Shown in pieces: positions 29,176-49,999 of a DNA stretch of 64,000 nt. Below the pieces are notes generated by a model. That model made no database searches. It worked only from the letters and a program-made list of their open reading frames with translations, and was not told the origin of the DNA. A program made the translations under genes and the position numbers. Source of the stretch: Streptomyces cadmiisoli (GTDB lineage: Bacteria > Actinomycetota > Actinomycetes > Streptomycetales > Streptomycetaceae); contig NZ_CP030073.1 of NCBI RefSeq assembly GCF_003261055.1, forward strand, positions 4,402,001 through 4,466,000, written 5' to 3'. Position 1 is the stretch's first letter; the number at the start of each line of letters is the position of its first letter.

Positions 29176-29279
29176 CTCGGTGCCCCCGAGGCCACCCCGC
29201 CTCGCCGGCCGGCCCGGACGGTCGACTCCATCGGCTGTGGATGCCCACCGGCATCCCCGCATGCAGCAGGAGAACCCGC

Positions 29280-30758
29280 ATGCAGCACACCCTGCGACTC
29301 GCCCTCGCGACGGCCACCGCGGCCGCGCTGACGGGCGGTCTGCTCACCTTCTCGGCCGCGACGGCGACGGCCGCGGACGCGACGACCGTCCCGCAGGCCG
29401 ACTTCAACAACGACGGCAAGGGCGACGTCGCCTTCTCCGCCGGCGGTGCCCAGGTCGCCGGCAAGAAGGCGGCCGGCCAGCTCGTCGTCCTCTACGGCAC
29501 CTCCACCGGCGTCTCGTCGGCGAAGCGCTCCACCATCAGCCAGAACACCACCGGCACGCCCGGCAGCGCGGAGACCGAAGACGGCTTCAGCTCCGACACC
29601 GCGTACGCGGACTTCAACGGCGACGGCTACGACGACCTCGCCGTCTCCGCCCCGTACGAGGACGTCGGCAGCGACAAGGACGGCGGCGCTCTCGCCATCC
29701 TGTGGGGCTCGGCGTCCGGCATCACCGGCAAGGGCGTCACCGTCGCCGACCCCGCCCCCACGTCGCACGACCGCTGGGGCAGGACCCTCGCCGCCGGAGA
29801 CTTCGACGGCGACGGCAAGGCGGACCTGGCCGTCGGCAGCAACACCGCGACCATCCACGTCCTCAAGGGCGGCTTCAACTCCTCCGGCACCCCGGGCGGC
29901 CGCTACACGATCAAGCCGCCGATCCAGGGCACCGAGGCGGGCGGCCCGCTCAACCTGACCGCGGGCAACATCAACGGCGGACCGGAGACCGACCTCGTGG
30001 TCGACGGCTACGAGACCGGCACCGAGTGGGGCTGGAACCGCAACTACTTCATCCCCGGCACCGCGAGCGGCCTGAAGTCCTCACTGGCCAAGACGCTCAA
30101 GCCCGGCATCATCACCGCGATCGGCGACATCGACGCCGACGGCTACGGCGACGTGGTCAGCGGCGCGTACTGGAACACCACCACCGAGGACGGCACCCCG
30201 GTGCCGGACTCCGGCAAGGGCGGCAAGGTCTGGATCACCCACGGATCGGACGGCGGCCCCCTGACCGGCAGCGCCACCGGCATCACCCAGGACACCGGCA
30301 GCGTGCCCGGCACCGCCGAGGGCAACGACTTCTTCGGCTACGAGCTGGACCTCGGCGACGTCAACGGCGACGGCTACCTGGACCTCGCGATCGGCGTCGC
30401 CGGCGAGAACATCGGCAGGGCGGCGAACACCGGCACGGTGGTCGTCCTCTACGGCGACGCGAACGGCATCAACACCTCCTCGGGCGCCCAGTCCTTCGCC
30501 CAGGACACCGCGGGCGTCCCCGGCAGCGACGAGACCGACGACTACTTCGGCCTCGACGTCAAGCTCGACGACGTCACCGGCGACGGCAAGGCCGACCTCG
30601 TCGTCGGCTCCATGGAGAACGCCGGCGACGGATCGGTGGTCTACCTGCCCTCCGGCGGCACGAAGATCACCACGTCCGGCGCGCGCTCCGTCTCCCCGAG
30701 CGCCTCGGGCGTCTCGACGACCGGCTCGCCGTACTTCGGCGCGAACTTCGCCGACTGA
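29280..30758 (+). CDS. Secreted FG-GAP repeat protein 1
   Basis: A 492-residue exported protein. The signal peptide ends near ATATAADA. About six to seven FG-GAP/VCBS-type blades follow, each with an ADFNNDGKGDVAF-like calcium loop (D-x-N/D-x-D-G) and a TGTPGSAETEDGF-like strand. Such repeats form integrin-alpha-like beta-propellers that bind calcium and surface partners; the ligand is unknown. AGGAGA precedes the ATG at 29280. It has its own terminator, separating it from the next two paralogues. Confidence 0.92.
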   Translation: MQHTLRLALATATAAALTGGLLTFSAATATAADATTVPQADFNNDGKGDVAFSAGGAQVAGKKAAGQLVVLYGTSTGVSSAKRSTISQNTTGTPGSAETEDGFSSDTAYADFNGDGYDDLAVSAPYEDVGSDKDGGALAILWGSASGITGKGVTVADPAPTSHDRWGRTLAAGDFDGDGKADLAVGSNTATIHVLKGGFNSSGTPGGRYTIKPPIQGTEAGGPLNLTAGNINGGPETDLVVDGYETGTEWGWNRNYFIPGTASGLKSSLAKTLKPGIITAIGDIDADGYGDVVSGAYWNTTTEDGTPVPDSGKGGKVWITHGSDGGPLTGSATGITQDTGSVPGTAEGNDFFGYELDLGDVNGDGYLDLAIGVAGENIGRAANTGTVVVLYGDANGINTSSGAQSFAQDTAGVPGSDETDDYFGLDVKLDDVTGDGKADLVVGSMENAGDGSVVYLPSGGTKITTSGARSVSPSASGVSTTGSPYFGANFAD

Positions 30759-30789
30759 CCCGCCGACCGGAGTCCTGACCCCGGTCCCC

Positions 30790-30820
30790 ACGGGGGGCGC
30801 GGCGATATCGCGCCCCCCGT
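30790..30820 (+). terminator. Terminator after FG-GAP gene 1
   Basis: A perfect 12-bp stem (ACGGGGGGCGCG / CGCGCCCCCCGT) with a 7-nt loop, 31 bp past the stop. Confidence 0.85.
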
Positions 30821-30849
30821 ACCACCGTGGCGAAAAAGTTTCGAACTGA

Positions 30850-30894
30850 CGTACAACCTTCAACGGGTCACGGCGGTCTCATGATCGCCGACCG
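30850..30894 (+). promoter_or_regulatory. Conserved upstream element of FG-GAP gene 2, ECF-promoter-like
   Basis: CGTACAAC at 30850 and GTCTC at 30876, followed by TGATCGCCGACCGC, the counterpart of the element at 29131-29175 with the same spacing. Conservation between otherwise unlike leaders marks it as functional. Confidence 0.55.
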
Positions 30895-31008
30895 CCACAA
30901 GCGTCCCGTCAGCCCATCGGCTCACCGGCGACCACGAGGCGGACCGCACCCTGTCGACCGTGGATGCCCGTACTCACCCGGGCCGGTTCCCCGACTGGAG
31001 CCCCGAAC

Positions 31009-32442
31009 TTGCGCAAGCGAACACTCCTGCTCGCCGCCACCCTCACCACCGGCCTGCTCACCGCCCTGCCCGCCGGCCCGGCCGCCGCCGCGCCCTCCGG
31101 TCTCGCCTGGGACTTCAACGGCGACGGCTACCGCGACGTCGCCATCGGCGCGATGAGCGCCGACGTCGGCTCCGTACAGGGCGCCGGCGCCGTCGTCGTC
31201 CTGTACGGCTCGTCCTCGGGTGTCTCGACGGCCAAGAAGACCGTGATCACCCAGAACTCCACCGGCGTCCCCGGCACCGCCGAGTCCGACGACCGCTTCG
31301 GCAGCAGCCTCGCCGCCGGCGACCTCAACGGCGACCGCTACGCGGATCTGGTCGTCGGCGCCCAGTTCGAGAGCGTCGGCGACCGCGACGGCGTCGGCAC
31401 GGCCACCGTCATCTGGGGCGGTCCGAAGGGCCTGACCGGCGGTTCGGCCCTGCCGCAGCCCGGCGGGCTGAGCGAGTGGGGCGGCTACTCCTCCGGCGTC
31501 GCCACCGGCGACTTCGACGGCGACGGCAAGACGGACGTCACGGTCACCGGCCAGAGCACCACCCAGCTGTACCGCGGCCCCTTCACCCGCACCGGCACCC
31601 CGCTGAGCCGGCAGCGCGTCGGCGAACTCGGCTCCACGTACGAGGTGTTCGCGGGCGACCTCGACGGCGACAAGAAGGCCGAGCGGGTCTACCCGTTCCT
31701 CGTCGACGGCGACTCGGGCGGCCAGATCCACTACTTCCGGCACGACCCGGGGAACGTGGAGCACCCCGAGTCGGACTACGCCATGCTCGAACTGCCCCAG
31801 GCCGACGGTGAGAAGGGCGCGATCGCCGACATCAACGGCGACGGCCGCGGCGACCTCGTCCTCGGCGACTACTCCGACCCCGGGAAGGAGAAGCCCGGCG
31901 GCCACAAGGGCGGCCAGATCACCGTCTGGTACGGCGGCGAGAACGGCCCCGACCCGGCGCAGAAACCGACCGTCATCCACCAGGACACCGCGGGCGTGCC
32001 CGGCGCGGGCGAGTACGGCGACGTCTTCGGTTCGGCGATCGCCGCCGGCGACGTCAACGGCGACGGCTACGCGGATGTCGCGGTCGGCGCCATGGGCGAG
32101 GACAACGGCACCGCCGAGGACTCGGGTTCCGTGACGATCCTGTTCGGCTCGGCCGCCGGCCTGAAGGGCTCCGGCGCCAAGTCGTACACGCAGAACACCA
32201 CCGGTGTGCCCGGCAGCAACGAGGACGGCGACCACTTCGGCATCTCGGTCCGCCTCGTCGACCTCGACAAGAACGGCAAGGCCGACCTGGTCACCGGCAC
32301 CGGCTACGAGAACGGCTACGGCTCGGTGACCGTCCTGAAGGGCACCTCCACCGGGCTGACCACGACCGGCGCCAAGTCCTTCACCGCCCGCGACGTCTCC
32401 CTCAAGGGCGGCGCCGACTTCGGCTGGGTGATCGCCCAGTGA
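31009..32442 (+). CDS. Secreted FG-GAP repeat protein 2
   Basis: A 477-residue paralogue of the gene just upstream. The start is a TTG at 31009, because GGAG lies exactly 8 nt before it and the protein then opens with a clean signal peptide (LRKRTLLLAATLTTGLLTAL, ending GPAAAA). Repeated blades show WDFNGDGYRDVAIG, GDLNGDRYADLVVG, GDFDGDGKTDVTV and GDVNGDGYADVAVG calcium loops. Its stop overlaps the start of the third paralogue (GTGA), so the two are translationally coupled. Confidence 0.9.
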   Translation: MRKRTLLLAATLTTGLLTALPAGPAAAAPSGLAWDFNGDGYRDVAIGAMSADVGSVQGAGAVVVLYGSSSGVSTAKKTVITQNSTGVPGTAESDDRFGSSLAAGDLNGDRYADLVVGAQFESVGDRDGVGTATVIWGGPKGLTGGSALPQPGGLSEWGGYSSGVATGDFDGDGKTDVTVTGQSTTQLYRGPFTRTGTPLSRQRVGELGSTYEVFAGDLDGDKKAERVYPFLVDGDSGGQIHYFRHDPGNVEHPESDYAMLELPQADGEKGAIADINGDGRGDLVLGDYSDPGKEKPGGHKGGQITVWYGGENGPDPAQKPTVIHQDTAGVPGAGEYGDVFGSAIAAGDVNGDGYADVAVGAMGEDNGTAEDSGSVTILFGSAAGLKGSGAKSYTQNTTGVPGSNEDGDHFGISVRLVDLDKNGKADLVTGTGYENGYGSVTVLKGTSTGLTTTGAKSFTARDVSLKGGADFGWVIAQ

Positions 32443-33884
32443 GGTACCGCCGACTCGCCGTCCTGGTCGCGGCGTCCCTGACGCCGCTCGCCCTGTCCGC
32501 CCCGGCCGCCCAGGCGGCGACACCGGCGGCACCGTACGACTTCAACGGCGACGGCCGGGCCGACCTGGCCGTCGGCGCGCCCGCCGCCACCGTGGCCGGC
32601 AAGGCGCGGGCGGGCGCGGTCTCCGTGGTCTACGGCAGCTCCACGGGCCTGAAGTCCTCCACGTACAAGGTCATCACGCAGAACTCCCCGGCCGTCCCCG
32701 GTTCGGCCGAGACCGACGACGCCTTCGGCTCCTCCCTCGCCTCCGCCGACCTGAACCGCGACGGTTACGCCGACCTCCTGGTCGGCGCGCCCGGCGAGGA
32801 CGTCGACGGCGACACCAACGACGGCACCGTCGTCATCGTCTGGGGCTCCAAGTCCGGCCTGTCCGGCGCCCGGACGCTGGTCAACCACAACCAGCGCGAG
32901 AACGACCGCTACGGCAAGGCGGTGGCCGCGGGCGACTTCACCGGCGACGGCCTGCCCGAGGTCGCCACCGGCTCGACCGGCATGTTCGAACTCAACTTCG
33001 TCTCCGGGCCGTTCACCAAGACCGGCCCCTTCGGCGGCGGCAACGGCGGCTCCCTCGCCGACGGCCTCCCGCCGTTCTCGTCGTCGTACGGCGTCGAGTA
33101 CCTCTCCGCGGGAGACGTCATGGGTCGGGGCTTCTCGAACCTGGTCGCGCACGGCCGCGTCAAGGGCACCGACGACGCCGTCACCGTCCTGGTGGACGGC
33201 AAGATCGGCAACTTCAACAACTGGCTGGTGCGCATGCCGTCCGGCTACGTCTCCGCCGTCGGCGACATCGACGGCGACGGGTACGCGGACGTCGCGGTCG
33301 GCAACCACCGCGAGACGTCCGCCGACCCGGCGGGCGCGAAGGGCGGCCGGGTCACCGTCCGCTACGGCGGCCCCGACGGCGTCGACCCGAGCCGGGCCCC
33401 GCTCACCCTCACCCAGGACACGCCCGGCGTCCCCGGCTCCGCCGAGACCGGCGACGCGTTCGGCTCCGGCGTCTCCGTCGGCGACATCAACGGCGACGGC
33501 TACGCGGACCTCGCGATCGGTGCCTCGGGCGAGTCCACCGGCGCCGCGACGACGACCGGCTCCGTGACGGTCCTGTTCGGCTCGGCCCGCGGGCTGACCA
33601 CGACCGGCGCCAAGACGTACACGCAGAACACCGCGGGCGTGCCCGGCGCCGAGGAGAAGTCCGACCGCTTCGGCGGCCGCACCTCCCTGCTGGACCACTC
33701 CGGAGACCGCCGCGCCGACCTGGTGATCTCCGCGCCGGGCGAGAACGCGGGCGACGGCGCGGTGACATCGCTGCGCGGCACGGCCACCGGCCCCACCACC
33801 ACGGGCGCGACCACCTTCGGCCCGTCGACCACAGGCATCGGCACCACCGGCACCCCGGGCTACGGCTCGATCCTGGGCGGCTGA
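32439..33884 (+). CDS. Secreted FG-GAP repeat protein 3
   Basis: A 481-residue FG-GAP beta-propeller protein. The GTG start at 32439 sits within the stop codon of protein 2. The signal peptide is MRYRRLAVLVAASLTPLALS with cleavage after AAQA. Propeller blades carry YDFNGDGRADLAVG, ADLNRDGYADLLVG, GDIDGDGYADVAVG and GDINGDGYADLAIG. The three adjacent paralogues are a tandem expansion; coupling of 2 and 3 implies fixed co-production, perhaps as partners on the cell surface. Confidence 0.92.
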   Translation: MRYRRLAVLVAASLTPLALSAPAAQAATPAAPYDFNGDGRADLAVGAPAATVAGKARAGAVSVVYGSSTGLKSSTYKVITQNSPAVPGSAETDDAFGSSLASADLNRDGYADLLVGAPGEDVDGDTNDGTVVIVWGSKSGLSGARTLVNHNQRENDRYGKAVAAGDFTGDGLPEVATGSTGMFELNFVSGPFTKTGPFGGGNGGSLADGLPPFSSSYGVEYLSAGDVMGRGFSNLVAHGRVKGTDDAVTVLVDGKIGNFNNWLVRMPSGYVSAVGDIDGDGYADVAVGNHRETSADPAGAKGGRVTVRYGGPDGVDPSRAPLTLTQDTPGVPGSAETGDAFGSGVSVGDINGDGYADLAIGASGESTGAATTTGSVTVLFGSARGLTTTGAKTYTQNTAGVPGAEEKSDRFGGRTSLLDHSGDRRADLVISAPGENAGDGAVTSLRGTATGPTTTGATTFGPSTTGIGTTGTPGYGSILGG

Positions 33885-33925
33885 CCCCGGAGGAAAGCGA
33901 CCCGCGGCCGGCCGGGGCAAAGGCC

Positions 33926-33952
33926 GAGGTGACCGCCCCTCGCGGTCACCTC
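33926..33952 (+). terminator. Terminator of the FG-GAP 2-3 operon
   Basis: A perfect 11-bp stem (GAGGTGACCGC / GCGGTCACCTC) with a 5-nt loop. Confidence 0.85.
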
Positions 33953-34076
33953 CCGACCTGACACCGGAGACGGCCGACCCGCCGTCCCCCAGGGGATGTC
34001 ACAGCTCGGCCGCAAAGCCGGGCCCGGTACCCCGGGCCCGGCACACCGCCGTTCGAGACCAGGTACGTTCGATGAC

Positions 34077-34988
34077 GTGGCTGGATTCAGGATGGGACGC
34101 GGCGGCCGCAACGACCGCGCCCCGCACACGCGACCGCAGCAACCCCCGTACGGACAGCAGGCGCCGCAGGCACCGTCGTACGGCTATCCCCCGGCGCCGC
34201 AGCCGCACCCGCGGCAGCAGCACGGGAACAGAGGCGGCGGCGCCCAGTGGCCGCAGACGCACGGCGGCTACGGCGGTCAGGGTGGCGAGCCCGAGTACTT
34301 CGGCGACGACCACGGGCACCGGCACGGCGCCCCGGACCCGTACGCGGCCAACAACCCCGGCCACACCCAGGCGTTCTCCATCAGCGAGGACCCCTACAGC
34401 CAGGGCGACACCTACCGCGCCGGCTCCGCCCCCGCCGCCCCGGCCGGCCCGCCGCTGCACTGGAAGGCCCTGCTGAAGGGCATCGTCACGGCGCCCGACC
34501 GGACCTTCCTGCGCATGCGCGACTACACGATGTGGGGCCCGGCCCTCGTCGTGACGTTCCTCTACGGCCTGCTCGCGGTCTTCGGATTCGACGGCGCCCG
34601 CGAGGACGCGATCAACGCCACGCTCTCCAACGCGATCCCGATCGTGCTGACGACGGCCGTCGCGATGGTGCTGAGCGCGTTCGTGCTGGGCGTGGTCACC
34701 CACACCCTCGCCCGCCAGCTCGGCGGCAACGGCGCCTGGCAGCCGACGGTCGGCCTCTCCATGCTGATCATGTCCATCACGGACGCCCCGCGTCTGGTCG
34801 TCGCGATGTTCGCCGGCGGTGACGCGCCCCTGGTGCAGATCCTCGGCTGGGCCACCTGGATCGCCGGCGGCGCCCTGCTCACCCTGATGGTCGGCCGCTC
34901 GCACGACCTGCCCTGGCCGAAGGCGCTGGGCGCGTCCGCGATCCAGCTGATCTCGCTGCTGTCGATCGTGAAGCTGGGCACGTTCTAG
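34077..34988 (+). CDS. Yip1-family membrane protein
   Basis: About 303 residues. A disordered N terminus rich in Pro, Gln, Gly and His (about 1-130) precedes a Yip1-type membrane domain. The domain begins LHWKALLKGIVTAPDRTFLRMRD and has about five TM helices (VTFLYGLLAVFGF, VLTTAVAMVLSAFVLGVV, LSMLIMSITDAPRLVVAMF, ILGWATWIAGGALLTLMV, ALGASAIQLISLLSIVKL). The function of bacterial members is unknown. The GTG at 34077 is chosen because TACGTT lies 7 nt upstream (leaderless pattern). Confidence 0.85.
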   Translation: MAGFRMGRGGRNDRAPHTRPQQPPYGQQAPQAPSYGYPPAPQPHPRQQHGNRGGGAQWPQTHGGYGGQGGEPEYFGDDHGHRHGAPDPYAANNPGHTQAFSISEDPYSQGDTYRAGSAPAAPAGPPLHWKALLKGIVTAPDRTFLRMRDYTMWGPALVVTFLYGLLAVFGFDGAREDAINATLSNAIPIVLTTAVAMVLSAFVLGVVTHTLARQLGGNGAWQPTVGLSMLIMSITDAPRLVVAMFAGGDAPLVQILGWATWIAGGALLTLMVGRSHDLPWPKALGASAIQLISLLSIVKLGTF

Positions 34989-37271: not shown

Positions 37272-37829
37272 ATGGCATCGTCCTGGACCGGTAGACAGGT
37301 ACGTCTGCGTGCTGTCGAGCCCGACGACTGGACAGCGTTCATGCGCCTCGCCGGCGAGGACGGGCGGCGCGGGAGCCGGCTGGATCTGCCGCGGTCCGCC
37401 GAGAGCTACCGAGCCTGGGCGAAGGACCAAGCCGTGGCCGACTGCGATGACGACCGCTTCCGGCTGGCAGTGCAAACGACGGTCACGGGAGAGCTGGTTG
37501 GCACCATCGGCTCGCATCGCACCGGCCCTCGTTCGGGCTGGTTCGAGTTCGATGTCACGATCGGCGCGGACCACCGGCGCAAGGGCTACGCGGCAGAAGC
37601 CCTGGTGCTGCTGATGCGCTTCATGTTCGCCGAGCGGCGCTATCACAAATGCCTTGGAGCGATCTTCGCCCACAACGAGGCATCACTGGCACTCACTCGC
37701 CGGCTCGGCTTCACCGAGGAGGGTCGCCTGCGGGAACACGTCTTCTTCGCCGGCCGGCACCACGACCTCGTCATGATGGGCATGCTCGCCGACGAGTTCG
37801 ACCGGCGACACACGCTGAGCGGACCGTGA
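37272..37829 (+). CDS. GNAT-family N-acetyltransferase (RimJ/RimL-like)
   Basis: A 185-residue acetyltransferase of the RimJ/RimL branch, which modifies ribosomal protein or small-molecule amino groups with acetyl-CoA. It starts MASSWTGRQVRLRAVEPDDW. The acetyl-CoA loop reads GADHRRKGYAAEALVLLMRF (Q/RxxGxG/A type), followed by YHKCLGAIFAHNEASLALTRRLGFTEEGRLREHVFFAGRHHD, the classic C-terminal motif B. No good ribosome binding site precedes the ATG at 37272. The substrate is unknown. It converges on the P450 gene. Confidence 0.87.
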   Translation: MASSWTGRQVRLRAVEPDDWTAFMRLAGEDGRRGSRLDLPRSAESYRAWAKDQAVADCDDDRFRLAVQTTVTGELVGTIGSHRTGPRSGWFEFDVTIGADHRRKGYAAEALVLLMRFMFAERRYHKCLGAIFAHNEASLALTRRLGFTEEGRLREHVFFAGRHHDLVMMGMLADEFDRRHTLSGP

Positions 37830-37881: not shown

Positions 37882-39183
37882 TCAGCCGCGCGGAGTGGCA
37901 CGCAGGCGCAAGCCGACAGTCGCGAGACCTTCGAAGGTGGTGACCTCGAAGCCGGGTTCCGGTCCGGGCGGCTCGCTCAAGTGGTGGCGGCGGGCGGTCT
38001 GCGCGGTCAGGAGCGTCAGCATCGCCATGGCCAGAGCCACTCCCTCGCAGGCGTGCGGCCCGGTGCCGAAGGAGAGGAAGGCCCCGCACTTCGCCGGCGA
38101 GCCCGAATCGTCGAGCCAGCGCTCGGGTTCGAACCGGTCCGGCTCGGGGTGTTCCCGTGCGTCGCGGTGGGCGGTGTAGGGGCAGACGAGAACGGTGGAA
38201 CCGGCGTCGACGGTGTAGCCGGCGAGCTGCGTCCGCCGCGTGGCGCGCCGGGTCAGCAGCCAGCTCGGGGGGTGCAGTCGGAGCACCTCGCGTATCAGTG
38301 CCTGGGTGTACGGCAGGCAGTCGAGGTGGGTGCTGGTCGTCGCGGCCGGGTCCGCGGGCAGCAAGGCGGCTTCGGCCGCGACGCGGTCCGCTGCCCGGGG
38401 GTACCGGGCCAGGTGGAGCAGGATCCATCCGGCTGCCCGGGAAGGTGTCTCGAAGGTGGCGACGGTGATTCCCGGAAGAGTGTCGAGGACGGCCTCTTCC
38501 GGCAGTGGGCCGTAGCGGGAGGTGGGACGGAGCATCTGTCCGAGCAGGTCGTCACCGAGCCGGCCCGATGAACGGCGCCGGCGGACGATCGGCCGCAGAG
38601 CGTTCGTGAAGGCGACTTGCTGCCGTGTGCGGAACCGCCGTGCCGGTGTGGGGATCCAGCGCGGCCACACCCAGCGCGAGGGGCGTATCAGCACCTCCCG
38701 GGCCAGGAAGAGCTGCGAGGCGAAGGGCAGCAGGGTGGGAGCGTCTTCGGAGAAGAGGTAGTGCAGGCCGGTCTCCGCCAGGACGTGGCGGACCGGCGGC
38801 AGAACCTCGACGCACTGGCCCGCGGGCCACCGGTCGGCGAATCGAGCGGTCCTGGGCGCGATCTCACCGATCCGGGCTGCCACCGCCTGCGCGCGCAGTC
38901 CGCGCATACGGGCGGCGTGCGCATGGGCGCGCTCCTCCGCCGTCGGTGCTCCGTCCGACTGCTTCAACGGCGGGAAGAGAGGCGAGGGCGCCTTGGGGAA
39001 GTCCTGCGCGCGGCGCAGGACGTCTTCACACGACCCGGCCGTGGCGGCCACGTAGACACCCGGCTCCAGCTGCCAGACGTCCCCGCACTCGTCGGCGCCA
39101 CGGCGCGCCAGCGCCAGCCGGTCGCGGCTCCATGCGGCGAAGCCGCCGTCGGGCAACCGCGGCGGCTCGTTGCTTCGGCCCAT
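37882..39183 (-). CDS. Cytochrome P450
   Basis: A 433-residue soluble heme monooxygenase. The heme loop FGTGPHACEG puts the axial cysteine at residue 379. The K-helix ExxR is in REVLRLHPPSW, the PERF-like segment is PDRFEPERW, and the I-helix ATFETP keeps the acid-alcohol pair although the usual Gly is Thr. The start at 39183 has AGGGA 8 nt upstream. No ferredoxin or reductase gene is near, so it must use general partners. It is preceded by a 32-codon ORF, a hairpin and an 11-bp direct repeat. This layout fits P450s that cross-link ribosomal peptides. Confidence 0.9.
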   Translation of the reverse strand: MGRSNEPPRLPDGGFAAWSRDRLALARRGADECGDVWQLEPGVYVAATAGSCEDVLRRAQDFPKAPSPLFPPLKQSDGAPTAEERAHAHAARMRGLRAQAVAARIGEIAPRTARFADRWPAGQCVEVLPPVRHVLAETGLHYLFSEDAPTLLPFASQLFLAREVLIRPSRWVWPRWIPTPARRFRTRQQVAFTNALRPIVRRRRSSGRLGDDLLGQMLRPTSRYGPLPEEAVLDTLPGITVATFETPSRAAGWILLHLARYPRAADRVAAEAALLPADPAATTSTHLDCLPYTQALIREVLRLHPPSWLLTRRATRRTQLAGYTVDAGSTVLVCPYTAHRDAREHPEPDRFEPERWLDDSGSPAKCGAFLSFGTGPHACEGVALAMAMLTLLTAQTARRHHLSEPPGPEPGFEVTTFEGLATVGLRLRATPRG

Positions 39184-39202
39184 GAGATGGTCCCTGGCTC
39201 TT

Positions 39203-39223
39203 GTACCTTTCCGGTACCTTTCC
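39203..39223. repeat. 11-bp direct repeat before the P450 gene
   Basis: GTACCTTTCCG followed directly by GTACCTTTCC, 19-40 nt upstream of the P450 start (read as GGAAAGGTACC repeats on the minus strand). It may be a regulator site or duplicated translation-leader element. Confidence 0.6.
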
Positions 39224-39256
39224 AGGCCGATGTCGTCGGCAGCGCGGCCGACGGTC

Positions 39257-39280
39257 GGCGGGCGCCCGAGGGCACCCGCC
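39257..39280 (-). promoter_or_regulatory. Intercistronic hairpin between the short peptide ORF and the P450 gene
   Basis: GGCGGGTGCCC-TC-GGGCGCCCGCC on the minus strand forms an 11-bp stem with one T-G pair, starting 10 nt after the peptide stop codon. It looks like an attenuator that would allow more peptide than enzyme to be made from one promoter. Confidence 0.6.
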
Positions 39281-39290
39281 GGCAGTTCGG

Positions 39291-39389
39291 TCAGGTTGAG
39301 TCGGCGCCGGCGTACGCGTCCCATTCGTGTTCCCCGTACGCACCGTAGTGGCGGGTGAAGGACAGCTTGCCCAGCAGCTTGGCGATCAT
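39291..39389 (-). CDS. Putative RiPP precursor peptide upstream of the P450
   Basis: A 32-residue ORF not covered by any neighbour. AGGAG sits 6 nt before the ATG, an excellent ribosome binding site. The peptide opens with a basic amphipathic stretch (MIAKLLGKLS), which would serve as leader. It then becomes aromatic and His-rich (FTRHYGAYGEHEWDAYAG), ending ADST: one Phe, three Tyr, one Trp and two His within 16 residues. Short leader plus aromatic core, encoded 107 bp before a lone P450, is the pattern of P450-modified RiPPs such as atropopeptides, cittilins and biarylitides. No known precursor sequence is recognised, so the assignment is by architecture. Confidence 0.65.
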   Translation of the reverse strand: MIAKLLGKLSFTRHYGAYGEHEWDAYAGADST

Positions 39390-39399
39390 GATGCACTCC

Positions 39400-39510
39400 T
39401 CTCGCCTGCCTGAGCTTTCCCGACTAAGAGTTCACTGATGAAGCTCCCCTCAGCAGTAAATGCCCTATATCCCATGTTGCCACATTTGTCACTTTGACAT
39501 GTTCAGACTT
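39400..39510 (-). promoter_or_regulatory. AT-rich promoter region of the peptide/P450 operon
   Basis: The 110 bp upstream of the peptide ORF are much lower in GC than the surroundings. They contain CTGAACATG (minus strand, 39498-39506), GTGGCAACATG and a GGATATAGGGCATTTAC stretch usable as a -10 region. The CTGAACATG motif is shared with the promoter of the DSSWG-peptide operon. Confidence 0.45.
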
Positions 39511-39564
39511 TCGTGGGCGCGCATGGAGATACATCGACGAGCACCGACGGCAACCCGTGCGCGA

Positions 39565-39596
39565 GGCGCGCCCGGCTGCGGGAAGCCGGGCGCGCC
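39565..39596 (-). terminator. Terminator of the lamin-tail-domain gene
   Basis: A perfect 13-bp stem (GGCGCGCCCGGCT / AGCCGGGCGCGCC) with a 6-nt loop, 55 bp after the stop at 39652. It insulates the peptide/P450 operon from upstream transcription. Confidence 0.88.
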
Positions 39597-39651
39597 TGTG
39601 GCTCGTCGGTGCGTGGGGAGAGCGTTCCAGGTCACGCACGCGGGGTTGTGA

Positions 39652-41268: not shown

Positions 41269-41660
41269 CCACGGACCGCGCCTCCGCAAGCGTCCGGTGT
41301 CCTCCGGCAGCTGCCCGCCGCAGGCGCGAGCGTCGACTCAGGGTGTCCTGCGACAGCTCGCCCCTCCAAGGTGGTGGTCAGGGGACCGGCTCCGCCATAC
41401 GCGCCCTCCGTACGCCGAGGCCGGCACGAGCCATTTCCAGGACGCGCTGCCGTGCCTGCCGGAAGTCCTCGTACGCCTGGTCCCGGCCGCCCGGTTCTGT
41501 CGCGGTACAAGCGAAGGTGCCGAGGTAGCGGGCATGGCCATGCTGTTACGCTTCGCGCTCACGCGCGTGGGGGAGCGGCTGGGGGGCCGGGAAGTTGCCA
41601 GGGCGATGCCGTACGTCCCGCCATGCCTTCTTCTTGGCTTTTTTCGCTCCTGGAGGAACG
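41269..41660. other. 392-bp spacer upstream of the large FG-GAP-like gene
   Basis: No supported gene. The last 120 bp become T-richer (TTTTTTCG near 41640) and probably hold the promoter of the next gene. No clear operator, hairpin or RNA gene is visible. Confidence 0.4.
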
Positions 41661-44600
41661 GTGGCCCGACTCGGCCGAACTCGTCACAGACACAGACCGT
41701 CTCTCGGAGCGGCTTCAACGCGGCCGGGCCCGGCCGCGGCGCGGGCCGCGGCCGTCCTGGCGGCGGCGCTGAGTCTCGGTCTCCCCCTCACCGCCCCGCC
41801 GTCCCCGGCCGTCGCCGCGGTCGCCGGCGAAGTCGTCCTGGACGCGGCCCCGCGTGCCGTTCCCAGGGCCACGCAGATCCTCAACGCCGGCACCAGCGGC
41901 TTCCTGTGGGCCCAGGAGGGCGATTACCGGCTCCTGTGGACGGAATACGCCACCGGCACCACGACCGCGCTGGAGCAAGAGCTGGACTTCGACCTCCAGT
42001 ACGACATCGACGGCGGCTACTTCACCCGGTCCGCGCCCTCCGAACCCGGCTATTACGGGGAAGGTTCCGACACCGTCGCCCTCTATTCGAACGAGGACCG
42101 CAAGGTCACCCTGATCGAGGGGGCCGGTACCTCGGGCGGCACCGCCGTGGTGGCGCTGCCCGAGCGCCACTCCTACCGGGGCACCTTCGGTGACGCGGTC
42201 CTCACCAGCACCTACGGGTACAACGGCATCCCGGACAGCTTCCAGATCTGGCGTGCGACGACCGGGGGCGAGCCCACTCGGACTCCCGTCACCGGGCTGC
42301 CGCAAGGCAGCGACTTCCAGATCGAGGACGGCGACGCGCGGTCCGTCATTCTCAGATACACCGTGGACGGTCCCGACCGCTGGGGCATCGTCGACCTCGC
42401 CACCGGCACGTTCAGCGCGCTGCCCGACCGGGTCCGCCCCGAAAACGAGTGGGAGGTGACCGGCTTCCGGCTGGGCGCCGACTCGGTGTTGCGACTGCGG
42501 ACCGAGCCCGCCAAGGCCGACGTCTACGACCGCGACGATCTGTCCGCCGCACCCCGCACCTTCGACACGAGCTCCATGGGCCTCGAAGCCGCGTACGGGA
42601 CGGTCGGCGACGCGCTGCTCGGCGTGGAACCGCTGTCGTCCGGCGACAACAGATACCGGGGCCGGCCCTTGTGGGCCCTGACCTCCGACGGCACGGACAC
42701 CGACCTGACCAGGGTCATGGACCCGGCCGCCTACGAAATGGTCCAGGCCCCGGACGGCTCCGTCCTGGTGGCGGGTGCCGAGAAGTTCCTGGAGAGGGGC
42801 GACCTCGACTGGGGCGTGTACCGGATCGCGCCGGGCGCCGACGGCTCGGTCACCCGCACCCGCGTGACCGCCGTGCAGCCGATGCCCGCGACGGTACGCG
42901 GACTCGCGTTCGGCAGCGGCGTCGTCACCACAGCCGACAACAGCACGCGGTACGAGCCGGCCGCGATCCTGGGCGCGTACCGCAGCACCTGGCTCGCCAC
43001 CGGCGGCACCCCCGGCGTGGCGAAGTCCAGTGTGGACGCTCTGGTCACCGCATGGGACGGCATCAAGCTGCTCGCCGACGGCACCGGTCGCCACGGCCGC
43101 CGGTACTCCACCGAGTCCGGCCTGACCATGCTGTACACCAACGGCGACACCGGCTGGGGCCCTCGCCTCGACATCGGCGACAGTTCTCCGGAACTCCAGG
43201 ATCTCTCCGGACGGTACGCGGTCGTCGACGGCGCGTCCTCCGGTCAGCAGTACATCGCCGAGTTCCCCGTCGACGGGACGACGCCGAAGGTCCTCCAGAA
43301 GCGCGACCGCGTCGCCGCGGCCGTGTGGGGCGACACCCTCTGGAGCGGGACGGCCACCGGCGGCAGAGTCACGGCCACCCGGCTCCCGTCCGGTGGCACC
43401 GTGGAGTCCTTCACCACCCGCGACGGCTGCAACCCGTCCGAACTGCAGGCGGTGGGCCGCTGGGTGTACTGGACCTGTGTGGACTCCTGGGGCGAGGTGC
43501 TGGGCTCGGGCCTCTACGACCGTACGACCAAGCGCGTGGCGAGCGCCCCCGAAGGGCCGGTTCTGCTCGGCGACGGCTACCTGGTCGAGCACCTCTCCGG
43601 CACCCAATCGGTCAGCGGGCTGACGCTCTTCGACCTGCACGGCGGACTGCCGTCCAGCGGCGACCACGCGGAACTGCCGAGCCGCAAAGTGGCCCACTGG
43701 ACCGAAATCGGCCGGAAGAAGGGCCTGGTGGGTACCGACTGGACCGTGGACCGCTTCGGCGGCGGCGTGGCGTACGTGGACACCAAGCAGCGCGTCCACG
43801 TGGTGCCGCCCGGCTTCCCGGCTTCCGCGATGACGGCGATCGACTCCTCTGTCACGAACAAGACCGCGAGCTGGTCGGGTACTTGGTGGCTGTCGAAGCC
43901 CGCCGCTTCATGGAAGGTGACGATCCGCAACAAGGCTTCCGGAGCCACCGTGCGTACCGTGTCCGGCTCCGGCGCCCGCGGACTGCTGACGGCCGCATGG
44001 GACGGCAAGGACTCCGCCGGCCGCCTCGTCGCCAACGGCACCTACACCTGGTCGCTCACCGCCCAGCCCGCCGACGGCCAGGGCACCGCCCTCAGCCTCT
44101 CCGGCAGCGTCAAGGTGACGACCGGAGCGGCGGCCCCCCGCGACTACGCGGGCAACGACGGTGTCGGTGACGTCCTGACCCTCAACTCCTCCGGCACACT
44201 CACCGTCCAGCGCGGCACCGGCACGGGCACGTTGGGCAGCAAGGTGTCCGGCAGCGGCTGGCCGACGAGCGCGAAATTCGTGCCGTACGGCGACCTCGAC
44301 GGCGACCGGTGCAACGACACCCTGGTCCGGCTGAGCAGCGGCGCGCTGCGGGCCTATCGCCCCGCCTGCGGCAAGGCACCGACCCCCTCGACGCCGTACA
44401 CCTCCCTCGGCACGTCCGGCTGGAACCAGTACGACGTGCTGGCCTCGCCCGGTGACGTCAGCGGCGACGGCCGCCCGGACCTGCTCGCCCGCAGCGCCTC
44501 GACCGGTGCCGTCTACCTCTACAAGGGCACGAGCGCGGGCAAACTGTCGGCGCGCGTGAAGCTGTACGACAGCTGGAAGACGTACAAGAAGGTCATCGGC

Positions 44601-44903
44601 GCCGGCGATCTGAACGGTGACGGCATCGGTGACCTCCTCGCTCAGGACAAGTCGAACAACCTGTACCGCTACAACGGCACGGGCAAGGGTACGTTCGGCG
44701 CCCGCGTGAAAGTCGCCTCCGGCTGGGGTGCCTCGTACAACGCGGTCGTCGGGGTGGGCGACATCACCGGCGACGGAAAAGCCGACCTGGTCTCCCGCGA
44801 CACGAGCGGGAACGTGTGGCGCAACAGCGGTGACGGCAAGGGCTCGATCGGCGGTCGTTCGAAGATCACGACGGGCTGGCAGGGGTACAAGGCCGTCGTG
44901 TGA
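41661..44903 (+). CDS. Large secreted protein with FlgD-Ig-like and VCBS/FG-GAP repeats
   Basis: A 1080-residue exported protein. The GTG at 41661 is chosen because GGAGGAACG precedes it directly. A twin-arginine-rich signal region ends near SPAVAAVA. Residues about 40-730 form an uncharacterised beta-rich region. A FlgD-like Ig domain follows (about 735-820: VTIRNKASGATVRTVSGSGA, WDGKDSAGRLVANGTYTW). The C terminus has four to five VCBS-type repeats (GDLDGDRCNDTLVR, GDVSGDGRPDLLAR, GDLNGDGIGDLLAQ, GDITGDGKADLVSR). A surface adhesion or matrix role is likely. It belongs to the same broad class as the triple FG-GAP genes at 29-34 kb but is not a close copy. Confidence 0.88.
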   Translation: MARLGRTRHRHRPSLGAASTRPGPAAARAAAVLAAALSLGLPLTAPPSPAVAAVAGEVVLDAAPRAVPRATQILNAGTSGFLWAQEGDYRLLWTEYATGTTTALEQELDFDLQYDIDGGYFTRSAPSEPGYYGEGSDTVALYSNEDRKVTLIEGAGTSGGTAVVALPERHSYRGTFGDAVLTSTYGYNGIPDSFQIWRATTGGEPTRTPVTGLPQGSDFQIEDGDARSVILRYTVDGPDRWGIVDLATGTFSALPDRVRPENEWEVTGFRLGADSVLRLRTEPAKADVYDRDDLSAAPRTFDTSSMGLEAAYGTVGDALLGVEPLSSGDNRYRGRPLWALTSDGTDTDLTRVMDPAAYEMVQAPDGSVLVAGAEKFLERGDLDWGVYRIAPGADGSVTRTRVTAVQPMPATVRGLAFGSGVVTTADNSTRYEPAAILGAYRSTWLATGGTPGVAKSSVDALVTAWDGIKLLADGTGRHGRRYSTESGLTMLYTNGDTGWGPRLDIGDSSPELQDLSGRYAVVDGASSGQQYIAEFPVDGTTPKVLQKRDRVAAAVWGDTLWSGTATGGRVTATRLPSGGTVESFTTRDGCNPSELQAVGRWVYWTCVDSWGEVLGSGLYDRTTKRVASAPEGPVLLGDGYLVEHLSGTQSVSGLTLFDLHGGLPSSGDHAELPSRKVAHWTEIGRKKGLVGTDWTVDRFGGGVAYVDTKQRVHVVPPGFPASAMTAIDSSVTNKTASWSGTWWLSKPAASWKVTIRNKASGATVRTVSGSGARGLLTAAWDGKDSAGRLVANGTYTWSLTAQPADGQGTALSLSGSVKVTTGAAAPRDYAGNDGVGDVLTLNSSGTLTVQRGTGTGTLGSKVSGSGWPTSAKFVPYGDLDGDRCNDTLVRLSSGALRAYRPACGKAPTPSTPYTSLGTSGWNQYDVLASPGDVSGDGRPDLLARSASTGAVYLYKGTSAGKLSARVKLYDSWKTYKKVIGAGDLNGDGIGDLLAQDKSNNLYRYNGTGKGTFGARVKVASGWGASYNAVVGVGDITGDGKADLVSRDTSGNVWRNSGDGKGSIGGRSKITTGWQGYKAVV

Positions 44904-45129
44904 GCCACCTCGCCCTGTGGCGCCGCCGGCCGCCGGCCGGCGTCACAGGGCCTTCCTGCCCCGCCCGGCTCCTCCTCCGGCACCGGCCCCGCGGCCTCCC
45001 CGGGAACCACCCCCCACCCCCGCGTCAGGCGAAGTACCCGATCTTCGCCCCCCGTTCACTCTCTCGTCCCGGCTGGCTTTGTCCGGGAGTGGCACGATCC
45101 GGCGCCGTAGTGGACCCACCGGAGGAACG

Positions 45130-47457
45130 ATGTCCCAGAAGAGAACCTACGCCGCGCTCGCGGCCCTCGCCGTGGCCGCCGGCTCCCTGGCGGGCGCGGG
45201 CGTGGCGAACGCGGAGCAGAGAACCGGCGGCGGGCACGGCGCCCAGCGGCCCGCGGCGTTCGAGCGCACCGCCACCTACCCGGTCTTCCAGAACCGCCCC
45301 GCCGGCGAGGACGCCGCGGCCGCCACCGTCGCGGAGATATCGGCGGTCAGCGAGGACGGCCGCACCCTCGTGCACACCGACGCCGCCGCCCGGCGGATCG
45401 GGTTCCTCGACATCGGGGACCCCGGACGCCCGCGCGGCCTGGGCACGCTGTCGCTGGCCCGGCTCGGTGACGCCGAGGACGAGCCGACCTCGGTGTCCGT
45501 GGTCGGCCAGTACGTCCTCGTGGTGGTGAACACCAGCGCGAGCCACGCCGACCCGTCCGGCCGGCTCGACGTCATCTCGCTGCGCGACCGCCGGCGGGTC
45601 GCGAGCTTCGACCTCGGCGGGCAGCCCGACTCCATCGTGGTCAGCAAGGACAAGCGGTACGCCGCCATCGCGATCGAGAACGAGCGGGACGAGGAGGCCA
45701 CCCCGCCCGGCGGGGAGGAGGGCGACCTGCCGCAGGCTCCGGCCGGGTTCGTGCAGATCGTGGACCTCAAGTCCATCTCGTCGCCGACCGGTTGGCGCAC
45801 CCGGGCCGTGCCGCTCACCCAGCCCGACGGTACGGCGCTGCCCGTGCTGGCCGCCGCCGGGATCGCCGAACCGACCGACCCGGAACCGGAGTACGTCTCC
45901 GTCAACGGCCGTGACCAGCTCGCCGTGACGCTCCAGGAGAACAACGGCGTCGTGCTCGTCGACCTGCCGACCGGCCGGATCACCAAGGCGTTCAGCGCCG
46001 GTACGGCGTCGGTGAGCGGTATCGACACGGTCGAGGACGGCCGGATCGACCTGACCGGCTCGATCACCGACGTGCCGCGCGAGCCCGACGCGCTGGGCTG
46101 GATCGACGACCGCTACCTGGCGACCGCCAACGAGGGCGACTGGCGCGGCGGTACGCGGGGCTGGTCCGTCTTCGACAGCCGGACCGGCAAGGTGGTCTGG
46201 GACGCCGGCAACAGCTTCGAGCGGATCGCGGTGCGGCACGGGCTGCACAACGAGGACCGGGCCGAGAAGAAGGGCACCGAGCCGGAGGGCGTGGTGATCG
46301 CCGAGTACCGCGGGGTGCGCTACGCCTTCGTCGGCTCGGAGCGGAGCAACTTCGTCGCGGTCTACGACATCAGCAATCCGACCCGCCCGGTCTTCCGGCA
46401 GGTTCTGCCCGCCACCAACGGGCCCGAGGGCCTGCTGCCGATCCCGTCGCGCGGCCTGCTCGCGGTCTCCAGCGAGGAGGACGACGCCGAGACCGGCGTA
46501 CGGGCCACGGTCAGCCTGTTCCGCCTCGGCAAGGGCACCCCCGAGTTCCCGGGCGTCGTCTCGGCGGAGGATTCCACCGGCGCTCCGATCGGCTGGGGCG
46601 CGCTCGGCGCGCTGTCCGCCGTCCCCGGCAAGCCGCACCAGCTGTACACCGTCACCGACGCCGTGTACTCCCCCACCAGGATCCTGACCGTCGACACGGC
46701 GCGGCAGCCGACGACCGTCACCCGGGCGCTGACCGTCAAGGACGCCGCGGGAAAGCCGGTCGGCTATGACGCCGAGGGCATCCACGCCCGGCCGCAGGGC
46801 GGCTACTGGCTCGCCGTGGAGGGCAAGACCGGTACGGGCAACCAGCTGGTCCGGCTGGACCGCGACGGCGTGACCCGCCAGGTCGTGCCGCTGCCGGCCG
46901 ACGTGGCGGCGGGCCTCGGCGGACAGGGCTTCGAAGGGGTCACCGCGACCACCGACCGGCACGGCCGCGAGATCGTCTGGGCGACGCTCCAGCGCGAGGT
47001 GGCGACCGACCCGGCGGGTGTGGTCCGGCTCGGCCGGTACGACGTCGAGGCCGATACCTGGAGCTGGTTCGGCTACCGGCTCGGTTCCACCGCGACGCCG
47101 GGTGACTGGATCGGCCTCTCGGAGATCACCGTGGTCGGCGACCGGCTCGCGGTCATCGAGCGCGACAAGCTGAACGGCCCGGCCGCCCGGGTCAAGCGGA
47201 TCTACACGGTCGAGCTGCCGAAGTCGGCCTCGGCACCGGGTTCGCTGCCCGTGCTGGCGAAGAAGCTGGCCCACGACGTGCTGCCCGACCTGCGGGCGAC
47301 GAACGGCTGGACCCAGGAGAAGCTGGAGGGGCTGGCCGTGGCCGGCGACGGCGAGGTCTACGCCGTGACCGACAACGACGGCCTGGACAACGCCACCGGG
47401 GAGACGGTCTTCCTGAACCTCGGTTCCGGCAAGAAGGTCTTCGGCCGGCGCGGCTGA
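45130..47457 (+). CDS. Secreted esterase-like phytase-family beta-propeller protein
   Basis: A 775-residue exported protein. The signal peptide ends AGVANAEQ. Repeated choice-of-anchor/propeller strands are followed by the esterase-like activity of phytase family domain in the C-terminal half (AVEGKTGTGNQLVRLDRDG, QGFEGVTATTDRHGREIVWATLQRE, GDWIGLSEITVVGDRLAVIERDKLNG, LEGLAVAGDGEVYAVTDNDG). Family members hydrolyse phosphoesters or are assigned by similarity only, so the reaction is uncertain. GGAGGAACG before the ATG at 45130 is the same leader as the preceding gene. A tandem GC repeat follows the stop. Confidence 0.85.
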   Translation: MSQKRTYAALAALAVAAGSLAGAGVANAEQRTGGGHGAQRPAAFERTATYPVFQNRPAGEDAAAATVAEISAVSEDGRTLVHTDAAARRIGFLDIGDPGRPRGLGTLSLARLGDAEDEPTSVSVVGQYVLVVVNTSASHADPSGRLDVISLRDRRRVASFDLGGQPDSIVVSKDKRYAAIAIENERDEEATPPGGEEGDLPQAPAGFVQIVDLKSISSPTGWRTRAVPLTQPDGTALPVLAAAGIAEPTDPEPEYVSVNGRDQLAVTLQENNGVVLVDLPTGRITKAFSAGTASVSGIDTVEDGRIDLTGSITDVPREPDALGWIDDRYLATANEGDWRGGTRGWSVFDSRTGKVVWDAGNSFERIAVRHGLHNEDRAEKKGTEPEGVVIAEYRGVRYAFVGSERSNFVAVYDISNPTRPVFRQVLPATNGPEGLLPIPSRGLLAVSSEEDDAETGVRATVSLFRLGKGTPEFPGVVSAEDSTGAPIGWGALGALSAVPGKPHQLYTVTDAVYSPTRILTVDTARQPTTVTRALTVKDAAGKPVGYDAEGIHARPQGGYWLAVEGKTGTGNQLVRLDRDGVTRQVVPLPADVAAGLGGQGFEGVTATTDRHGREIVWATLQREVATDPAGVVRLGRYDVEADTWSWFGYRLGSTATPGDWIGLSEITVVGDRLAVIERDKLNGPAARVKRIYTVELPKSASAPGSLPVLAKKLAHDVLPDLRATNGWTQEKLEGLAVAGDGEVYAVTDNDGLDNATGETVFLNLGSGKKVFGRRG

Positions 47458-49993: not shown

Positions 49994-49999
49994 TTGCCC

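What the first reader, a model, noticed from the sequence alone, without database searches (positions are those of the whole stretch)
39183..39389. A 32-codon aromatic peptide ORF with a perfect ribosome binding site precedes an isolated P450: candidate P450-modified RiPP locus
Seen: AGGAG-N6-ATG, an ORF with basic leader-like start and a core crowded with Phe, His, Tyr and Trp (FTRHYGAYGEHEWDAYAG), a stop, a hairpin, then a P450 with intact heme and ExxR motifs. Known: atropopeptides, cittilins and biarylitides are made by P450s that cross-link aromatic residues in short precursor peptides encoded beside them. Inferred: this P450 oxidatively couples side chains such as Tyr, Trp and His in the core. 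No protease, transporter or redox partner is in the window, consistent with a minimal RiPP operon.
Basis: partly seen in the sequence, partly recalled or inferred. Interest (0 to 1): 0.85.

Follow-up and report, generated by a model that had tools for sequence, protein, structure and literature searches.

The report
Streptomyces P450-modified aromatic peptide cassette
A tiny, strictly conserved aromatic peptide gene sits in front of a cytochrome P450 gene in a scattered set of Streptomyces-family bacteria, very probably the raw material and the enzyme for a cross-linked natural peptide whose structure still has to be determined.

Summary
The 32-codon ORF (39291-39389, minus strand) is a real gene: 39 of 39 P450 orthologs at 81% identity or more carry it upstream, and in 394 Streptomycetaceae genomes P450 and peptide occur in the same 23. 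Across 44 distinct peptides I2, L5, L6, L9, F11, R13, Y15, G16, A17, Y18 and G19 never vary and a Trp follows at 23 (22 in two); the tail varies. pN/pS is 0.27. The P450 groups with tryptorubin-type P450s. It is not an atropopeptide (no KSLK, no WxxW) nor a biarylitide: an uncharacterised cyptide-type RiPP subfamily. Cross-linking itself is inferred. Against: three distant P450s also have short ORFs in front, but only one clearly exceeds nine control P450s. The main cyptide paper (Nam 2023) is not held, so this group may already be catalogued.

The parts
39291..39389 (-). precursor peptide gene, 32 codons plus stop: MIAKLLGKLSFTRHYGAYGEHEWDAYAGADST; leader about residues 1-13, conserved core Y15-G-A-Y18-G-x-H-x-W23, variable tail 24-32
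39396..39400 (-). Shine-Dalgarno AGGAG, 6 bases before the ATG; the GAGAGGAG block is invariant in the 23 loci aligned (L017 and L062, not in that set, read GAGAGGAA)
39256..39281 (-). intergenic hairpin (11 bp stem, 4-nt loop) between precursor and P450; 91.6% of cells paired in 22 loci, weak covariation
37882..39183 (-). cytochrome P450, 433 aa, proposed peptide macrocyclase
37272..37829 (+). GNAT acetyltransferase (PF13302), convergent, 52 bp from the P450 stop; linked in 30 of 40 loci
39564..39597 (.). perfect 14-bp inverted repeat between the cassette and the upstream lamin-tail-domain gene; possible boundary (inference)

Best explanation
A compact RiPP cassette of the cyptide kind. The small ORF is translated as a precursor of 24-32 residues. 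Its amphipathic N-terminal half (IxxLLxxLxFxR) docks on the P450 and the segment YGAYGxHxW enters the active site. The heme-oxo species oxidises a Tyr (or Trp) ring and the radical couples to a second aromatic side chain, most likely Tyr15 with Tyr18 (spacing i, i+3, as in WxxW of atropopeptides), possibly with Trp23 as a second bridge. Electrons come from ferredoxin and reductase encoded elsewhere. Host proteases remove the leader and probably the variable tail. Where the GNAT gene is present it probably acetylates the freed N-terminus, or protects the producer. The hairpin after the precursor gene may let more precursor than enzyme be made. Shown: the gene, its constraint, its linkage to the P450 and the GNAT, and the P450's grouping in a tree. 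Inferred: docking, residues joined, trimming, acetylation, role of the hairpin, function of the product.
For: 39 of 39 P450 orthologs at 81% identity or more have the ORF. Peptide and P450 are found in the same 23 of 394 genomes. Fixed residues in 44 distinct peptides; pN/pS 0.27 over codons 2-19 and 0.20 over codons 11-19. Tree of 22 P450s: the window family (6 rows), four tryptorubin-type P450s and the P450s of L074, L085 and L051 lie on one side of a branch with support 100/100; seven other P450s of the host genome and two more (L048, L049) lie on the other (midpoint root, for drawing only; L051 flagged as a long branch). The three outside branches have short ORFs in front: MALLKTASYAIARRTKMTALAGFYKY (L074), MKRTRRLVARLVGRKRVSGRYPYWPYQLR (L085), MMRLVKRTLGVHRGQMPGRYRIYRVR (L051), ending 115, 89 and 87 bases before the P450 against 107 in the window. 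A copy in G233 has a P450 of which only parts of residues 1-175 align and, beside it, a precursor with Tyr15 lost. An Arg before the coupled residues is required by the RiPP P450 ApyO (PMC13192836, abstract and passages); here R13 is invariant.
Against: No chemistry was seen. Control for the kin: of nine P450s on the other side of the branch, none has an ORF with both an SD-like site and two or more F/W/Y in its last 20 residues, but one (L049) has an SD-less ORF with four; so L074 clearly exceeds the controls, while L085 (four, no SD-like site in the scanned span) and L051 (two) do not by these measures. The P450 is about 35% identical or less to the others in the tree, and the NCBIfam ApyO model does not separate it from terpene P450s (window 115 bits, the host's terpene-type L003 187). 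Synonymous sites are also fairly conserved, so RNA-level constraint is not excluded (the alternative-frame control in that script crashed and was not repeated). Hairpin covariation is weak. The AlphaFold model of the P450 was poor (pLDDT 54) and no complex was modelled. The core hardly varies, unlike many RiPP families.
Confidence: 0.83

Rival explanations
1. The ORF is a cis-acting leader peptide: ribosome stalling or attenuation at its aromatic codons and the following hairpin controls P450 expression; the peptide itself is not a substrate.
For: A strong hairpin follows the stop codon and the spacer to the P450 is regular; synonymous codons are fairly conserved.
Against: Intact precursor copies with a similar upstream block stand alone in G229 (C2:2129980) and G233 (C1:3278901); tblastn with this P450 found nothing better than E 2 in the 12 kb fetched around each. 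By eye the G229 copy keeps the hairpin sequence, the G233 copy diverges within it. A cis-regulator would have no P450 to regulate there. Constraint is on amino acids (pN/pS 0.27). No Rfam family matches at E 1 or better; no T-run terminator was found.
Confidence: 0.08
2. The peptide is a free-standing membrane-active or toxic small peptide and the P450 (with the GNAT) modifies or detoxifies it, or something else, without side-chain cross-linking (for example hydroxylation or nitration).
For: Amphipathic basic N-terminus MIAKLLGKLSF; P450s in RiPP pathways can do other oxidations (RufO nitration, title and abstract start in the listing); a GNAT could be an antidote.
Against: Two Tyr fixed in 44 of 44 distinct peptides and a Trp at 23 or 22, and the P450's grouping with coupling enzymes, favour coupling.
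Confidence: 0.06
3. The P450 works on an unrelated small molecule and the peptide gene is a passenger or a protein partner of the enzyme.
For: Two of the nearest P450s in the same genome (31% and 33% identity) are terpene-type by NCBIfam.
Against: Among ORFs of 80 aa or more in 40 loci, only the P450 and the GNAT recur in most; peptide and P450 co-occur perfectly.
Confidence: 0.03

Closest known systems
Atropopeptides (tryptorubin A, scabrirubin; group 1/2 cyptides)
   Same: short precursor gene just before a P450, short leader, aromatic pair spaced i, i+3, P450 on the same side of a tree branch, no other gene conserved upstream in most loci
   Different: no KSLK motif, no WxxW/WxxY core, aromatic core followed by 1-9 residues, P450 separated by long branches; a linked GNAT in most loci
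Biarylitides (P450Blt, myxarylin)
   Same: P450-made aromatic bridge in a minimal operon; earlier biarylitides are N-acetylated by an acetyltransferase unknown in 2021 (PMC8708641 passages), which parallels the GNAT here
   Different: five-residue precursor there (abstract of PMC13417212), 24-32 residues here; Y-x-H spacing there
Aminopyruvatide P450 ApyO
   Same: couples Tyr side chains and needs an Arg upstream of the Tyr pair (PMC13192836 abstract and passages)
   Different: Y-L-Y spacing, an extra MNIO enzyme in the cluster, Burkholderia; NCBIfam score far below the ApyO cut-off (115 against 525 bits)
Cyptides roseovertin, rubrin, lapparbin and the other groups of Nam et al. 2023
   Same: the general definition: short precursor plus P450 that joins aromatic side chains (review passage)
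   Different: precursor sequences of the groups could not be read (paper not held), so identity with one of them is not excluded

Membership tests
P450-modified RiPP (cyptide superfamily) | short precursor ORF encoded next to the P450 and conserved with it | tested here: met
   39 of 39 orthologs; same 23 of 394 genomes
P450-modified RiPP (cyptide superfamily) | conserved aromatic residues in the core | tested here: met
   F11, Y15, Y18 in 44 of 44 distinct peptides; W at 23 in 42 and at 22 in 2
P450-modified RiPP (cyptide superfamily) | P450 related to known peptide-coupling P450s | tested here: met
   on one side of a 100/100 branch with four tryptorubin-type P450s in a 22-row tree with long branches; the HMM for ApyO is not discriminating
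P450-modified RiPP (cyptide superfamily) | P450-made bond between aromatic side chains | not testable with these tools
   needs MS and NMR
Atropopeptides | KSLK-type motif before the core (KSLK, RSLK, ESLK, KSRK, KPLK, PSLK) | tested here: not met
   motif list from PMC11450843 section 8; absent from the 44 peptides printed
Atropopeptides | WxxW or WxxY core | tested here: not met
   core is YGAYGxHxW followed by 1-9 residues, one conserved Trp; core definition from PMC12352619 passages
Biarylitides | five-residue precursor | tested here: not met
   24-32 residues; definition from abstract of PMC13417212
Aminopyruvatides (ApyO) | P450 passes the ApyO model cut-off | tested here: not met
   115 bits against 525
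Cittilins | Tyr-rich precursor core and kinship of the P450 | not tested
   no cittilin P450 or precursor sequence was fetched

The most novel reading that the evidence does not exclude
A so far uncharacterised cyptide subfamily in which one P450 makes a multi-bridged Tyr-Tyr-Trp peptide inside a precursor (leader and follower on both sides), a dedicated linked GNAT caps it, and in some species extra precursor genes encoded hundreds of kilobases or more away feed the same P450 in trans.
Probability: 0.3. Interest if true: 0.65.

Novelty: new member of a known kind. Interest (0 to 1): 0.52.

Why it matters
It turns an unannotated 99-base ORF and an anonymous 'cytochrome P450' into a testable enzyme-substrate pair with 44 natural substrate variants. 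The linked GNAT is a candidate for N-acetylation of a P450-modified peptide; for biarylitides that acetyltransferase was called unknown in 2021 (PMC8708641 passages). Lone precursor copies raise the question of in-trans modification.

Tried and rejected
Literature by peptide strings: 0 papers; six shorter strings gave 127 papers, 15 listed, all on YGAYG alone and none about RiPPs by title; the other 112 were not seen. Absence from print cannot be claimed: Nam 2023 and Hu 2023, a P450-RiPP review and the MpoB paper are not held. NCBIfam ApyO match as evidence for a RiPP P450: rejected, since the host's terpene-type P450 scores higher. tRNA-Gly next to the cassette as a fixed integration site: rejected, most of the 39 other loci show no tRNA in the stretch held. 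A conserved upstream partner: lamin-tail-domain gene in 1 of 40 loci, cupredoxin in 1 of 40, a small membrane protein in 5 of 40. AlphaFold model too poor for a fold search; none was run. Promoter and terminator scan: nothing. Alternative-frame pN/pS control: script failed after the main result, not repeated.

Mended on checking: a control on other P450s was added and weakens the kin argument; confidence lowered from 0.85 to 0.83 and two rivals raised by 0.01 for that. L050 was not examined for peptides.

Rows dropped: of 43 loci, the four at 29-39% identity (L048-L051) were left out of ortholog counts; of the 24 genomes, G319 (35%) likewise. The 62 loci come from two collections and include repeats of the same species, so distinct peptides (44) are the number used. 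One search aligned 23 of the 62 loci, 22 of 62. Nine tryptorubin-type loci were fetched, four used in the tree; two of nine other host P450 matches were not.

Full report
The observation. The minus strand of 39183-39389 reads as described: AGGAG, six bases, ATG, 32 codons (MIAKLLGKLSFTRHYGAYGEHEWDAYAGADST), stop, a hairpin, and the ATG of a 433-aa P450. Pfam gives PF00067 for the P450 and nothing for the peptide. In the 64-kb window 736 start codons give ORFs of 20-45 aa; 25 have a Shine-Dalgarno-like core. This ORF is the only one of the 25 with seven or more F/W/Y/H, though one other has more F/W/Y (six against five). Only comparison could settle it.

Conservation. The P450 found 43 loci in one genome per species: 39 at 81-89% identity, all Streptomycetaceae (Streptomyces, Kitasatospora, Actinacidiphila), then a gap to 39% and below. 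All 39 carry the ORF upstream (27 seen, the other 12, 39 of 39 by one uniform search); in L045 it ends about 300 bases before the P450. With 22 further loci and the window this makes 62 loci and 44 distinct peptides. Invariant: I2, L5, L6, L9, F11, R13, Y15, G16, A17, Y18, G19. Trp is at 23 in 42 and at 22 in two (YGAYGVAW, YGAYGVGW). H21 is kept in 41 of 44; position 14 is H, N or R. The tail after Trp has 1-9 residues (T, S, GA, DAYAGDD, GTHTGDDRV, GTSADKL and others). pN/pS over codons 2-19 is 0.27.

Co-occurrence. In 394 Streptomycetaceae genomes the P450 at 80% identity or more is in 23, and a separate search with the peptide hits the same 23. In a class-wide sample of 394 genomes (137 genera) three had a match at E 1e-42 or better, all of the window's genus, one being the window's own. 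The cassette is thus narrow and patchy; two copies lie on replicons of 1.5 and 2.8 Mb listed as plasmids.

The enzyme's kin. The nearest P450s outside the family are at about 35%. Three were examined for a short ORF in front: L074 (AGFYKY, followed by an MFS transporter), L085 (GRYPYWPYQLR) and L051 from Actinomadura litoris (GRYRIYRVR). All three have one, ending 87-115 bases before the P450, against 107 in the window. Control: in nine P450s of other kinds (L002-L008, L048, L049), no ORF in the 350 bases before the gene had both an SD-like site and two or more F/W/Y in its last 20 residues, but L049 has an SD-less one with four. L074 clearly exceeds that; L085 and L051 rest on position and pattern. 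Tryptorubin-type loci were fetched as a yardstick by the AWYIWY pattern (core recalled; 9 of 297 genomes; seven of the nine precursors carry KSLK and two QSLK). In a tree of 22 P450s the window family, these three and four tryptorubin-type P450s lie on one side of a branch with support 100/100; seven other P450s of the host genome, L048 and L049 lie on the other. The root is drawn at the midpoint, branches are long, L051 is flagged as unsure, and the order inside is unresolved. A match to the ApyO model is not informative.

A third gene. Among ORFs of 80 aa or more, only one neighbour recurs in most loci: a GNAT acetyltransferase on the opposite strand. Among 40 loci it is 16-152 bp from the P450 in 29, 3 kb away in one, and absent from the 6 kb held downstream in 10. 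In 101 genomes of the genus the four GNATs of 79% identity or more all lie beside the P450, while GNATs of 59-69% in seven other genomes have no such P450 within the 1.5 kb seen. G233 keeps only a 29-residue match beside its P450. The seven species with the shortest tails (two residues or fewer after Trp) lack the GNAT (6 kb seen in five, 1.5 kb in two); this is confounded by kinship and is left unexplained. Earlier biarylitides are N-acetylated by an acetyltransferase unknown in 2021 (PMC8708641, passages), and acetyltransferases are listed among genes near atropopeptide P450s (PMC11450843, passages), so N-terminal acetylation is a reasonable guess, no more.

Extra precursor copies. G229 (its contig matches Streptomyces sp. 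BHT-5-2, NZ_CP081497.1, by length and position) has a second intact precursor about 790 kb from the P450, and G233 a second one about 2.6 Mb away. Both lie next to a divergently oriented cupredoxin gene and a small membrane-protein gene, and neither has a match to this P450 better than E 2 in the 12 kb fetched. The G233 copy looks like a recombinant: upstream and first half resemble the G229 lone copy, the second half its own linked copy. A third G233 copy stands beside a P450 of which only parts of residues 1-175 align, and its peptide has lost Tyr15. Lone copies speak against a cis-acting leader ORF and suggest modification in trans.

Mechanism. Best reading: leader docking, P450 coupling of Tyr15 with Tyr18 (i, i+3, the spacing of WxxW in atropopeptides, PMC12352619 passages; YRIY and YWPY in the kin), perhaps Trp23 as a second site, trimming by host proteases. 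My estimates: cyptide-type RiPP 0.83; a bridge using at least one of Y15, Y18, W23 0.75; Y15-Y18 in particular 0.4. The invariant Arg13 recalls the Arg that ApyO requires (PMC13192836, abstract and passages). The hairpin is conserved (91.6% of cells paired in 22 loci) with weak covariation.

Known or new. It fails the tested defining features of atropopeptides (no KSLK-type motif, no WxxW/WxxY core), of biarylitides (precursor length) and of ApyO enzymes (cut-off). It fits the broad cyptide definition except for the untested bond. Peptide strings gave no paper and no RiPP paper among the 15 listed, but Nam et al. 2023, who mined P450 homologs for new groups (19 as I recall; a review passage speaks of 19 novel BGCs), is not held. 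Hence: new member of a known kind, possibly already binned, not characterised in anything read here.

Noticed in passing
L135 (G229), L136 (G233): Lone precursor genes lie next to a divergent cupredoxin gene (PF00127 in L135) and a small membrane-protein gene in both genomes; a possible link to copper was not tested.
   Followed up: partly
L074:1270-1350 and 1465-2847; L085:1287-1376; L051:5308-5388: Three other short precursor candidates (FYKY, YPYWPYQLR, YRIYRVR ends) before distant P450s; the first has an MFS transporter downstream.
   Followed up: partly
L134 (G233 C1:181736): A decayed copy: P450 reduced to fragments and a precursor with Tyr15 replaced, next to each other.
   Followed up: yes
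window 37882-39396: The ORF list gives a 504-aa ORF that runs the P450 frame through the precursor gene in another frame; gene finders could mis-start the P450 there and hide the precursor.
   Followed up: no
L011, L017, L027, L034, L036, L053, L073: Loci whose precursors end within two residues of the Trp all lack the GNAT gene in the flank held.
   Followed up: partly
window 29241-34988 and 41595-47457: Several long secreted-looking ORFs around the cassette; the one scanned (29241-30755) has FG-GAP repeats. Not related to the finding.
   Followed up: no
window 49994-51607: Multicopper oxidase (PF07731/PF07732).
   Followed up: no
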